Origin: Ectothiorhodospira haloalkaliphila ATCC 51935
Lineage (GTDB): Bacteria > Pseudomonadota > Gammaproteobacteria > Ectothiorhodospirales > Ectothiorhodospiraceae
Reading direction: 5' to 3'
NCBI RefSeq assembly: GCF_000633935.1
Contig: NZ_KK214998.1
Location: 1,192,010 to 1,256,009 of the forward strand
DNA: 64,000 nucleotides
This document shows positions 3,151 to 47,104 of the stretch, piece after piece (the stretch's first letter is position 1; each line of letters begins with the position of its first letter). A program made the position numbers and the translations under genes. Under the pieces are notes generated by a model. It worked only from the letters and a program-made list of their open reading frames with translations. It did no database searches and was not told where the DNA came from.

Positions 3151-4293
3151 TTAATCGTCGGCCCGTACGGCCGGTAACGCGTCAAACAGACGCTCTGCAT
3201 CAGCGATGGCCTGGTCCTGGTGGGTGTCCAGTACGCAGAAATGTCCCATCTTGCGGCCCGGGCGGGCCTCCTCCTTGCCGTAGAGGTGCAATTTGGCGCG
3301 AGGATGGGACAGCAGCATGCCCCAGTCGGGCTCCCCGTCCGTCCACAGATCCCCCAGCAGGTTGACCATCACCACCGGTGAGAGCAGGTGGGTGTCGCCA
3401 AAGGGCAGACCGCAAAGCGCGCGGACCTGCTGCTCGAACTGGGAGGTGATGCACGCATCCAGGGTGAAGTGGCCACTGTTATGAGGGCGCGGCGCCACCT
3501 CGTTGACCAGCAACTGCCCCTCGGTGGTGATGAAGAATTCCACGGCCATCAGGCCCACATAATCCAGTGCCACGGCCAGGGCGATGGCGGCGTCGCAGGC
3601 CTCGCGGACCGTGGCATCCGGTACCCGGGCAGGGACGATGCTCATGTGCAGGATGCCACCCCGATGGATGTTCTCGGCCACCGGATAACACAGGCACACC
3701 CCATCGCTTCCACGGCTGAGCACCACCGAAATCTCCACGGCCAAGTCCAGCTTGCGCTCCAGCACACAGGGCACACGCCCCAGGCGCTCAAAGGCCCGGC
3801 GGCAGGCCTCGGCGCTGTCCACGGAGACTTGCCCCTTGCCGTCATAGCCCAGGGCGGCACGCTTGAGAATGGCCGGGTCCCCCACCGACTGAAAGGCCGC
3901 TTCCACCTGATCTGCCGATGCCACCACCTCGAAGGGGGCGGTGTCCAGTCCGGCCCGGCGGATCATGTGCTTCTCCCGGGCCCGGTTCTGCGTATGCTCC
4001 AGGGCCGCCGCACCCGGGCGCACGGGAACCCTGTCAGCCAGGTGTCGCAGGGTATCGGCGGGGATGTTCTCGAACTCGGTGGTAATGGCGGCACAACGCT
4101 GCGCCAGTTGATCCAGGGCCCAGCCATCCCCGTAGGCGGCGTGGACATGGTCATCGGCCATACGGCCAGCAGGACTGCCTGAATCAGGGTCCAGCACCAT
4201 CACCCGATAGCCCAGCGTGCGCGCGGCCACGGTGAACATGCGACCCAACTGGCCGCCGCCCAGCATCCCCAGGGTGTGACCGGGCAGGATCAT
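3151..4293 (-). CDS. purK: 5-(carboxyamino)imidazole ribonucleotide synthase (ATP-grasp)
   Basis: PurK carboxylates aminoimidazole ribonucleotide with ATP and bicarbonate to N5-CAIR, the substrate of PurE. The 380-residue protein starts with the dinucleotide-like [11 protein letters not shown] segment. The ATP-grasp domain follows, with [14 protein letters not shown] and the metal-binding segment [15 protein letters not shown]. Length matches the family. Its start overlaps the purE stop by 4 nt (ATGA), implying translational coupling, as in the standard purEK operon. Confidence 0.96.
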
Positions 4294-5883: not shown

Positions 5884-6576
5884 ATGAGCACTCTCATGTC
5901 CGGCACAGGGCTTTTCATCACCGGCACCGATACCGGCGTGGGCAAGACGGTGGTGGGCTGCGCCATCCTGCGGGCCCTGAGGGCTCGTGGTGTGAACGTG
6001 ATCCCCCGCAAGCCCGTGGAATCGGGCTGCCGGGAAGAAAAGGGGGGCATGTGGCCGGAAGATGGAGCGCGGCTCATGGAAGCCGCTGGAGGCGGCAGCC
6101 TGGAGCAGATCACACCCTGGCGCTTTGCCCATGCCCTGGCCCCGGACCGGGCCGCGCGCCTGGCACGCACCCGGATCATGCTGGATGCACTGGAATCCGC
6201 CTGCCAGCCCACGCCGGGGGAGGCGGGCTTCCGACTGGTGGAAGGGGCTGGCGGCTTCCTGTCACCTCTGGCGGAGGACGGTCTCAATGCCGACCTGGCC
6301 GTGCGCCTGGGCCTGCCAGTGCTGTTGGTGGCCCCCGACCGGTTGGGGGTGCTCAATCACATCCTGCTGACCGCCGAGGCCATCAAGCGCCGTCAGCTAC
6401 ACCTGGCCGGAGTGGTGCTCAACGATTGTGCCGGACCGGGTCCGGAGGGGATGGACAACCGGCAGGATCTGGAGCGCAGGCTGCAGACACCTATCTGGTC
6501 GTTTGCGGCGGTGGAGGACGGGGAATTGCCGTCGGACTTGGATGGACTGGCAGATTGGGTGAAGGCAATCCTATGA
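5884..6576 (+). CDS. bioD: Dethiobiotin synthetase
   Basis: BioD carboxylates 7,8-diaminopelargonate with ATP to form dethiobiotin, the penultimate biotin step. The 230-residue protein has the P-loop GTDTGVGKT with Lys21, the substrate-site segment KPVESGC, and the conserved VEGAGGFLSPL. Length fits. An AGGAGG-like ribosome binding site lies just upstream of the ATG. It is 42 bp after purC on the same strand. No other bio gene is visible, so the rest of the pathway is elsewhere. Confidence 0.94.
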   Translation: MSTLMSGTGLFITGTDTGVGKTVVGCAILRALRARGVNVIPRKPVESGCREEKGGMWPEDGARLMEAAGGGSLEQITPWRFAHALAPDRAARLARTRIMLDALESACQPTPGEAGFRLVEGAGGFLSPLAEDGLNADLAVRLGLPVLLVAPDRLGVLNHILLTAEAIKRRQLHLAGVVLNDCAGPGPEGMDNRQDLERRLQTPIWSFAAVEDGELPSDLDGLADWVKAIL

Positions 6577-33418: not shown

Positions 33419-33441
33419 GAGGGGCCATGCCCGCCGCCACT

Positions 33442-33596
33442 CGCGGCCGGGGGCCGCTCCCACGGGAGTTATCCTGAGGCCAGGAGTCGGGAGCCATGGC
33501 ACGCCCCCATGTGGGAGCGGGCCTGCCCGCGAATGGGGTTGGCGGCGGGGTTGGGTGCTGTACCCGCCGCCATTCGCGGCCGGGGGCCGCTCCCAC
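33442..33596. repeat. Cluster of three REP-like palindromic units
   Basis: Three copies of the GTGGGAGCGG-type REP unit lie between the pseudopilin and HiPIP genes. Two are inverted (33442-33463 and 33570-33596, ending GCCGCTCCCAC) and one is forward (33511-33536, GTGGGAGCGGGCCTGCCCGC). The same family occurs at 46447-46519. Forward/reverse pairing is typical of REPIN elements mobilised by RAYT transposases; no such gene is in the window. Confidence 0.85.
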
Positions 33597-45394: not shown

Positions 45395-46032
45395 CGCACC
45401 GCAAACAGCCGGGAGACCCGGCCCATGCCGTCCAGATCCAGGATCACTTCCACTGCCAGGGGCAGAGAGGCGTGCCCCCCGTCCAGGCCGGCGGGGGGCC
45501 AGTAGTCCAGGGCCGCGGTGCCGGCGCCATCCCGGTAATGAAACCGCACCTCCCAGTCCCGCAGGGCGGCCGCATCGTCCCGGCTCAGCAGGGGCATGCG
45601 CCCGGTGGGCTCCTCGTGGCCACCATCCAGGGCCGACCAGTACAGGCGGTAAAGGGTGCCCTGCTCCATCTCCCAGGCCACCCGCTGCAGGCTGCTGCGT
45701 CCCGTGCCACTGCGGGCACCCGCGCGGATCAGCTCCAGACGGGGGGGCTCGCGCAGCCCCGAAAAACGCAAGGGCGGCCGAAAATCCCCATAGCCATCCC
45801 GGGCGGGCCGCTGGGCAATCTGTTCCAGATCACGCCCCATGAGTGTGAAGGCCAGTTGCACCTGCCCCAGGCGCTCGGCGGAGGCCGCCGTCATGGCCTG
45901 GGCGTCCAGCACGGTACGCAGGCCGCCATAGGCCATCACCGACACCAGGGCAAAGATGCCCAGGGTGACCACCAGCTCCATGAGGGTGAAGCCCTGTTGA
46001 GCAGCCCCGGATCTGCAGATTGCCGGCTTCAT
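45391..46032 (-). CDS. gspJ: Type II secretion minor pseudopilin GspJ
   Basis: The 213-residue prepilin has a 14-residue leader and the processing site G-FTLMELVVTLGIFALVSVM with Glu5. The GspJ domain includes YGGLRTVLDAQAMTAASAER, RDLEQIAQRPARDGYGD and the segment RVAWEMEQGTLYRLYWSALD. It forms the tip complex with GspI and GspK. Its start overlaps the gspI stop and its stop overlaps the gspK start, each by ATGA. Confidence 0.94.
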   Translation of the reverse strand: MKPAICRSGAAQQGFTLMELVVTLGIFALVSVMAYGGLRTVLDAQAMTAASAERLGQVQLAFTLMGRDLEQIAQRPARDGYGDFRPPLRFSGLREPPRLELIRAGARSGTGRSSLQRVAWEMEQGTLYRLYWSALDGGHEEPTGRMPLLSRDDAAALRDWEVRFHYRDGAGTAALDYWPPAGLDGGHASLPLAVEVILDLDGMGRVSRLFAVR

Positions 46033-46571
46033 GGATTCAGGAACCCCGCAAGCCGGGCCAGGTAGGGGGCATCCGGATCATCCTGGTCGCGTACGGTCAC
46101 CTGGATGCGCGGCACGGCCCCGAGGCTGTAGCCGGCCACGTCCAGATCCCGGGGCTGGATCTCCACCTCCCAGTACCATTCCCGCTCGGCCATGATCATC
46201 GCGCCGCGTCGGGTGCCCCGGGCGGGCTCCTCCATGCCGGCGCGGTAGCGGGCCATCACGTTGCTGGCCACCCAGTGGGCGTGGGTGCGGTCACGCAGAT
46301 AGGCGGCATTGCGGGCGTTTTCGCTGGCCACCTTGATGACCGCGCCCATGGCCACGGCCAGGATGGTCACCGCCACCAGCACCTCCAGGAGGGTGAAGCC
46401 CGATTGCCGGCGTGATCCGGCGGGAACCCCTGCAGAAAAACACCCTGTGGGAGCGGCCCTTGGCCGCGAATGGCCAGAGCGAAGAGACGGCACCCTTCGC
46501 GGCCAAGGGCCGCTCCCACAAGGGCTCCCATGGGGGTTGCCGAAAAGGCTTCCGGTGGATGGGCGTATCAT
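46029..46571 (-). CDS. gspI: Type II secretion minor pseudopilin GspI with an unusually long leader
   Basis: The mature part starts at G-FTLLEVLVAVTILAVAMGAV (Glu5 present) and has the GspI domain: NARNAAYLRDRTHAHWVASN, then EREWYWEVEIQPRDL. It nucleates the pseudopilus tip. The ATG at 46571 overlaps the gspH stop by 4 nt, exactly like its neighbours, so it is probably the real start. That gives a 58-residue leader instead of the 9-14 residues of GspG, GspH and GspJ here. Leader residues about 18-42 are encoded by a REP doublet (46447-46519). A GTG inside the leader is an alternative start but would also include REP sequence. Confidence 0.88.
   Translation of the reverse strand: MIRPSTGSLFGNPHGSPCGSGPWPRRVPSLRSGHSRPRAAPTGCFSAGVPAGSRRQSGFTLLEVLVAVTILAVAMGAVIKVASENARNAAYLRDRTHAHWVASNVMARYRAGMEEPARGTRRGAMIMAEREWYWEVEIQPRDLDVAGYSLGAVPRIQVTVRDQDDPDAPYLARLAGFLNP
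46447..46519. repeat. REPIN-like REP doublet inside the gspI leader codons
   Basis: A forward unit GTGGGAGCGGCCCTTGGCCG (from 46447) and an inverted unit ending GGCCGCTCCCAC (46496-46519) flank about 20 bp. They belong to the same family as the cluster at 33442-33596. The frame of gspI stays open through both units. Confidence 0.85.
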
Positions 46572-47104
46572 CGCCAGTCTTCCGGTCGGGTCATACGGAT
46601 GCGGCCATTGGGCTGGCCCTCGATGATGAAATAAGGGCGACGGGATCGGTCGGCATGCAGATGCAGTTCAAAGGGGGTGATTTCCCCGGTAATGCCCAGG
46701 TAGACATGGGGCGCCGGATTGTCCAGGGTGCGATCCAGGCTCACGGCGATGCCCTCCAGACGCAGTTCCAGCTCCAGACCCAGGTCTTCCAGATTGCGCT
46801 CGCGCAGTTGGCGGTCGCCCTCCAGGGGCAACCATTCATAGGTGCGCTCCCCCACCTCAAACTCCCGCAGAAAGGTGTAGCCGTGGCGGGAGAAGCCCGC
46901 CGCCGTCTCCTCGGCGGTGAGGATCCCCTCATCCCGGGCCAGCTCCATCAAGGCCACGATGCGACGTGCCTCCTGCTCGATCATGCGATCACGCCCCCCA
47001 TCACCCACGGCGATGACGGCAAAGGTGAACATGATGCCGATGATGAACAGCACCACCACCAGTTCCAGCAGGGTGAAGCCCCTGCTGTGCCGGGTGTCAG
47101 TCAC
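46568..47104 (-). CDS. gspH: Type II secretion minor pseudopilin GspH
   Basis: The 178-residue prepilin has a 9-residue leader and the site G-FTLLELVVVLFIIGIMFTF with Glu5. The GspH domain has EQEARRIVALMELARDEGIL and GFSRHGYTFLREFEVGERTY. It connects the tip complex to the GspG body. It overlaps gspG by 8 nt and gspI by 4 nt. Confidence 0.94.
   Translation of the reverse strand: MTDTRHSRGFTLLELVVVLFIIGIMFTFAVIAVGDGGRDRMIEQEARRIVALMELARDEGILTAEETAAGFSRHGYTFLREFEVGERTYEWLPLEGDRQLRERNLEDLGLELELRLEGIAVSLDRTLDNPAPHVYLGITGEITPFELHLHADRSRRPYFIIEGQPNGRIRMTRPEDWR

What the first reader, a model, noticed from the sequence alone, without database searches (positions are those of the whole stretch)
46029..46571. 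REP doublet inserted into the leader peptide of GspI without breaking the frame
The gspH/gspI ATGA overlap fixes the start at 46571, yet the prepilin site is 58 residues in, against 9-14 for the other pseudopilins in the operon. A forward/inverted REP pair (46447-46519) encodes about 25 of the extra residues. Insertion of a REPIN into coding DNA of a conserved machine, tolerated because leaders are removed, is unusual.
Basis: partly seen in the sequence, partly recalled or inferred. Interest (0 to 1): 0.6.

Follow-up and report, generated by a model that had tools for sequence, protein, structure and literature searches.

The report
Mobile DNA hairpin inside a secretion gene
In a purple sulfur bacterium a short mobile DNA hairpin sits in frame inside the start of a secretion-machine gene, so its sequence is probably translated as part of a leader that the cell cuts off; the same kind of repeat lies in frame inside several other genes of this bacterium, a phenomenon known from a few other bacteria.

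Summary
gspI (46571-46029, minus strand) starts in an ATGA overlap with gspH. A REP doublet (REPIN, 46447-46519) lies inside its leader. The leader has 57 residues before the cleavage Gly, against 12, 11 or 7 in seven related Ectothiorhodospira genomes without the element. E. marina DSM 241 carries the element at the same place (61 residues).

In both carriers the only in-frame ATG/GTG/TTG upstream of the element is the 46571 ATG; the first one after it lies beyond the cleavage site. One in-frame GTG in the window's spacer is missing in E. marina.

The REPIN spacer is inverted between the two species, with the frame open both ways.

It is not unique. REPs of this family lie in frame in ccoI, a Nuo/Hyf-like gene, a glycosyltransferase gene and ftsY of the same genome, and probably in a lipoprotein leader. 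For the first three, alignments show inserts that most relatives lack. So "tolerated because leaders are removed" is only part of the story. In-frame intragenic REPs are already in print (PMC3733652): a new member of a known kind. Translation itself was not measured.

The parts
46029..46571 (-). gspI, minor pseudopilin GspI, 180 aa, ATG start in an ATGA overlap with gspH
46398..46571 (-). extended prepilin leader, 57 residues plus cleavage Gly58
   Evidence: N_methyl / GFxxxE motif at 54-79
46447..46519 (-). REPIN: two 23-nt REP cores in inverted orientation with a 27-nt spacer, 73 nt, open in 6 of 6 frames
46497..46519 (-). 5' REP arm (read GSGPWPR)
46470..46496 (-). REPIN spacer; its reverse complement matches the E. 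marina spacer at 22 of 27 positions
46447..46469 (-). 3' REP arm (read SRPRAAP)
46491..46493 (-). GTG in the spacer, the only other in-frame ATG/GTG/TTG upstream of the cleavage site; not in E. marina
46568..47104 (-). gspH, upstream overlapping gene

Best explanation
A REPIN of the abundant REP family of Ectothiorhodospira, presumably mobilised by a REP-associated tyrosine transposase (RAYT), entered the leader region of gspI. It survives because the whole insert (REPIN plus flanks) keeps the frame, the REP core has no stop in any of six frames, and the extra peptide is hydrophilic and positively charged and sits in the cytoplasmic leader that the prepilin peptidase removes, so mature GspI is unchanged. 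Shown by sequence: the element, the open frame, the shared insertion in E. marina, the short leader elsewhere, the absence of an internal ATG/GTG/TTG start in E. marina, and the inverted spacer. Inferred: translation, cleavage, RAYT as mobiliser, and recombination between the arms as the cause of the spacer flip. The same tolerance, apparently without cleavage, holds for REPs in loops or linkers of other proteins of this genome.
For: gspI is found in 9 of 10 genus genomes; 2 of 9 carry the REPIN (window genome and G003) and 7 of 9 do not, with leaders of 12 (G009), 11 (G004, G005) or 7 residues (G001, G002, G007, G008). In both carriers the only in-frame ATG/GTG/TTG upstream of the element is the ATG, and the first after it is 21 codons on, past the cleavage Gly. 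The ATG is conserved with a strong Shine-Dalgarno match in G003 and G009 (-9.5 each; -3.5 in the window genome). Mature GspI looks constrained (G000 against G003, NG86 dN 0.030, dS 0.281); the leader is looser (dN 0.094, dS 0.287; 44 codons, spacer left out). The 12-nt length difference keeps the frame. The leader has 8 K/R and 0 D/E in the window genome, 10 and 1 in G003, and in the window genome no hydrophobic 19-residue window. A RAYT (NF047646, E 5.6e-38) with REP-like sites on both sides is in the genome. In-frame REPs occur in further genes.
Against: No proteomic or ribosome data. In the window genome a GTG in the spacer could start a 31-residue leader, although its Shine-Dalgarno match (-2.9) abuts the codon and lies in the stem. 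Non-canonical starts cannot be excluded: both carriers have an ATA codon. The leader exceeds the printed ranges I saw (6-26 aa, PMC4471445; 6-51, PMC6916266). The REPs beside the RAYT are of a sister type (stem GGGC...GCCC or CCGG...CCGG), not the gspI type. G009 is not a clean empty site: its leader holds 14 of 15 nt of a REP end (1 in 3000 shuffles), so it may be a loss rather than the ancestral state. In-frame tolerance is not universal: in G009 the ftsY frame runs through its REP but is lost further on in the same low-complexity region.
Confidence: 0.85

Rival explanations
1. The REP lies in an untranslated spacer: gspI really starts inside or after it, and the 46571 ATG is not used.
For: Common elsewhere: PMC3733652 (section 15 read) holds that many NH2-terminal REPs may be extragenic because translation starts further down. 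The window genome has one GTG in the spacer and a weaker Shine-Dalgarno match at the ATG than its relatives.
Against: No ATG/GTG/TTG between the element and the cleavage Gly in either carrier; the GTG is absent in G003; the ATG is conserved in G003 and G009; the overlap ATG is the only in-frame ATG/GTG/TTG upstream of the element.
Confidence: 0.08
2. The hairpin was kept because it regulates gspI (mRNA processing, or slowed translation tuning GspI against GspH), not merely tolerated.
For: Very stable hairpin beginning about 50 nt after the start codon (z -6.5). The two arms are identical between the carriers over 35 and 27 nt, whereas gspI+gspJ DNA is 88% identical.
Against: Only 2 of 9 genomes have it; the arm identity is equally explained by recombination between arms, which the flipped spacer also suggests; no Rfam family reached its gathering score; no expression data.
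Confidence: 0.1
3. gspI is a decaying pseudogene and the open frame is luck.
For: Oversized leader.
Against: Mature protein conserved (115 of 123 residues) with low dN/dS, and an apparently intact set of pseudopilin genes in the window.
Confidence: 0.02

Closest known systems
Intragenic GTAG REPs (Di Nocera et al. 2013, PMC3733652)
   Same: REPs and REP dimers in frame inside ORFs, often 20-30 aa, including Thioalkalivibrio uvrA (same family as Ectothiorhodospira by recalled taxonomy); flexible loops proposed as tolerant sites
   Different: That paper leaves many NH2-terminal cases open as likely downstream starts; here start-codon content argues that the N-terminal case is translated, and the spacer is inverted between two species. 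Ectothiorhodospira has 0 occurrences in its main text; its supplements were not seen.
Rickettsia palindromic elements (RPE)
   Same: Palindromic repeats inserted in frame in protein genes (described in PMC2229807 and PMC3733652, passages read)
   Different: Different sequence and lineage (recalled); the passages read claim no RAYT link
REPINs of Pseudomonas fluorescens SBW25 (PMC3116915)
   Same: Inverted REP doublet with spacer, hairpin, RAYT in the genome
   Different: There, primarily extragenic: 14 overlapping genes among the 1,067 occurrences of the top 16-mers (passage read)
Type IV prepilin class III leaders
   Same: Hydrophilic leader ending in Gly before GFTLLE
   Different: 57/61 residues against 6-26 (PMC4471445, passages) or 6-51 (PMC6916266, passages)

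Membership tests
REPIN | two REPs in inverted orientation with a short spacer | tested here: met
REPIN | REP core repeated many times in the genome | tested here: met
   77 places at up to 1 mismatch, 0 in the control pattern
REPIN | RAYT flanked by REPs in the genome | tested here: met
   NF047646 E 5.6e-38; 13 REP-like sites (up to 3 substitutions), 5 on one side and 8 on the other, of a sister REP type; 0 in the 8 other Y1_Tnp loci scanned in the same call
REPIN | mobilised by that RAYT | not testable with these tools
   needs cleavage or transposition assays
REPIN | GTAG-type head | tested here: inconclusive
   head is GTGG; PMC3733652 reports GTGG as a variant in one family (passage)
In-frame intragenic REP | open frame through the element joining conserved coding sequence | tested here: met
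In-frame intragenic REP | homologue without the element | tested here: met
   7 of 9 genus genomes with gspI; the closest, G009, has a possible REP scar
In-frame intragenic REP | REP-encoded residues present in the protein | not testable with these tools
   needs proteomics
GspI | T2SS protein I domain and prepilin motif within a gsp operon | tested here: met

The most novel reading that the evidence does not exclude
In Ectothiorhodospira REPs act as recurrent in-frame peptide donors: the core is stop-free in all six frames and is found read in all six across genes of one genome (one of them, VGAALGR, only in the probable lipoprotein case), and recombination between the arms of an intragenic REPIN can flip its spacer and swap a stretch of the encoded peptide without breaking the frame, possibly as a reversible switch.
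Probability: 0.12. Interest if true: 0.7.

Novelty: new member of a known kind. Interest (0 to 1): 0.42.

Why it matters
N-terminal REPs in genes are usually suspected of being mis-annotated starts. Here two species share the insertion and one has no ATG/GTG/TTG that could serve as an internal start, so one N-terminal case can be argued from sequence alone and tested with a single peptide. It adds a natural series of filled, partly filled and empty sites in one genus for asking where proteins accept mobile-element peptides, and it bears on how long a prepilin leader may be.

Tried and rejected
Internal start after the REP: rejected on codon content. Insert as part of a larger repeated unit: an exact pattern for the right flank occurs once in G000, once in G003 and not in G009, which speaks against a dispersed repeat; the left flank and inexact copies were not searched. 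Rfam over 46300-46700: 7 weak matches, all far below gathering scores. G009 as a pristine empty site: doubtful, because of a 14/15 REP-end match in gspI (1 of 3000 shuffles) and the REP head GTGGGAGCGGC in its lipoprotein gene where the window genome has a REPIN. Codon-bias census: 65, 51 and 52 clusters (77, 66 and 54 REPs) in stretches of G000, G003 and G009 fetched around listed REPs; for G003 one search counted 69 places and listed 62 by my count. The script itself called only two window-genome clusters internal (L062, L084); the other in-gene cases rest on family matches and, except ftsY, on alignments or side-by-side N-termini. Candidates with a start codon within 7 codons after the REP and no alignment support (L048, L061:1501, L065:1501, L145, L172, L184:1201, L199, L208) were treated as upstream, not in-gene; L188, L195 and L211 were not followed. 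The first training gene of the codon model was out of frame (a slip; the model was re-trained on 33 ORFs in the same call).

Full report
What is there. The minus-strand ORF 46571-46029 is gspI by family models (TIGR01707 E 2e-19; PF02501), between gspH and gspJ, with an ATGA overlap. Inside its leader lie two 23-nt REP cores in inverted orientation (46497-46519 and 46447-46469) around a 27-nt spacer. The frame runs through all of it; the prepilin Gly is residue 58. The core pattern has 77 matches in the genome at up to 1 mismatch and 0 for the reversed control.

Who has it. In the genus, gspI was found in 9 of 10 genomes. Two of the 9 carry the REPIN: the window genome and G003. Leaders before the Gly are 57 and 61 residues in these, 12 in G009, 11 in G004 and G005, and 7 in G001, G002, G007 and G008 (counted from the nearest plausible start, a TTG in G005). 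G003 matches E. marina DSM 241, and G001, G007 and G008 match E. lacustris and E. shaposhnikovii, by equal contig lengths.

Is it translated? In both carriers the only in-frame ATG/GTG/TTG between the preceding stop and the element is the overlap ATG; after the element the first is 21 codons on, inside the mature hydrophobic stretch. The window genome has one GTG in the spacer; G003 has none, only an ATA. The ATG has a Shine-Dalgarno energy of -9.5 in G003 and G009 and -3.5 in the window genome; the spacer GTG has -2.9 directly abutting. So in G003 GspI cannot be made from an ATG, GTG or TTG start without translating the whole REPIN. That is a sequence argument; no protein was seen.

How it has changed. 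Aligned directly, the two spacers score -7; with one reverse-complemented they score 17 (22 of 27 identical), against a maximum of 2 in 5000 shuffles. The flanks are shared and not inverted, so the interior most likely flipped in one lineage, and the frame is open both ways. The arms are identical over 35 and 27 nt, while gspI plus gspJ DNA is 956 of 1085 identical; at 8% divergence 62 unchanged nt would have probability 0.006. That figure is rough: the 8% is my choice, near the 0.919 identity of mature gspI, and the tracts were extended to their first mismatch. Recombination between the arms would explain both facts. G003 also has one more 12-nt unit just before the first arm, which keeps the frame. 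NG86: mature gspI dN 0.030, dS 0.281; leader without spacer dN 0.094, dS 0.287, on 44 codons only. The REP core is open in 6 of 6 frames, the window REPIN in 6, the G003 one in 5; 17 doublets of the window genome had 84 of 102 frames open (4.9 per doublet) against a mean of 3.9 when their letters are shuffled.

Not alone. A census of the stretches around REPs found further in-frame cases. CcoI-type ATPase (PF00122, PF00403): doublet in the window genome and G003, a single REP in G009, none in the 4 others aligned. Nuo/Hyf-like subunit (PF00361): a 24-residue insert in the window genome only, of 8 sequences aligned, one of them a paralogue. Glycosyltransferase: REP inserts in the window genome and G009, none in the 6 others aligned, of which the G003 one is only 51% identical and may be a paralogue. 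FtsY: two REPs in the low-complexity N-terminal part in the window genome and two in G003 at 1 mismatch. A result against easy tolerance: in G009 the ftsY N-terminal frame is open through its REP but ends further on in the same region, and the rest of the protein lies in another frame, which may be a real break or a sequencing error. A C39/TPR lipoprotein probably has a REPIN ahead of its signal core, but GTG codons within the REPIN leave its start open. Counting these, 6 of 65 clusters in the window genome lie in five conserved genes, and 7 with the lipoprotein (for the clusters; most of the other clusters were judged only by codon bias). The frames read are GSGPWPR and SRPRAAP (gspI), AAEGRSH and WERPSAA (ccoI), SRPGAAP (Nuo/Hyf-like), RGRGPLP (glycosyltransferase), WERPPAA (ftsY) and VGAALGR (lipoprotein), so all six frames are used if the lipoprotein start is right, five otherwise.

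Mobiliser. The genome has a 160-aa RAYT (NF047646, E 5.6e-38) with 13 REP-like sites at up to 3 substitutions, 5 on one side and 8 on the other; 8 other Y1_Tnp loci of the genus scanned in the same call had 0. Those sites have other stems than the gspI REP, so which RAYT moved it is open.

Known or new. PMC3733652 (passages and section 15 read) reports REPs and dimers within ORFs, including Thioalkalivibrio uvrA, and warns that many NH2-terminal ones may be extragenic. PMC2229807 (passages) reviews in-frame RPE and other small elements. PMC3116915 (passages) finds REPs mainly extragenic. Leader ranges in print are 6-26 (PMC4471445, passages) and 6-51 residues (PMC6916266, passages). A search for Ectothiorhodospira with 'repetitive extragenic palindromic' gave 0 papers. 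A search on REPIN, inversion and spacer gave 3 papers: PMC3733652, read in part, and two seen only in the listing, neither titled on spacer inversion. The verdict is a new member of a known kind, with the flipped spacer as its most unusual trait.

Function. I think the insertion is tolerated rather than selected. The leader is hydrophilic, with 8 K/R and no D/E, which fits a cytoplasmic leader. The hairpin (z -6.5) starts about 50 nt after the start codon and could tune expression, but nothing here shows that.

Noticed in passing
L062:1501-1593 (G000), L094 (G003), L095 (G009): In-frame REP doublet in a CcoI-type P-type ATPase gene; G009 has a single REP there; G003 carries a further 65-residue in-frame insert (with PLTPTPLPAGERG) that looks like another palindromic element.
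   Followed up: partly
L084:1501-1523; L065:4981-5003: Single REPs in frame inside a Nuo/Hyf-like subunit gene and a glycosyltransferase gene, absent from most relatives aligned.
   Followed up: yes
L061:3247-3269 and 3589-3611; L184:3030-3052: Two REPs in the low-complexity N-terminal region of FtsY in the window genome, both read KPWERPPAAKPEP; in G009 the ftsY frame breaks downstream of its REP.
   Followed up: partly
L057:1501-1585; L214: REPIN at the N-terminus of a C39/TPR lipoprotein gene; in G009 only the REP head GTGGGAGCGGC remains at that place.
   Followed up: partly
e.g. L051:1501-1736, L058:1501-1742, L175:1201-1436: About 20 units of 220-250 nt bounded by inverted REPs, with nested palindromes around a core near GCCTACAGGGATGTATTCACGGCGTCCC, in three genomes (21 units listed, one of different make-up); no Rfam match above its gathering score inside the units of the four loci searched.
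   Followed up: partly
L092:1831-3281: RAYT gene with REP-like arrays on both sides, of a REP type differing from the gspI one.
   Followed up: partly
L051:6122-6375: Cobalamin riboswitch (RF00174, 92.1 bits, above gathering) close to a REP at 6463.
   Followed up: no
window 33441-33596: REP triplet elsewhere in the window.
   Followed up: no
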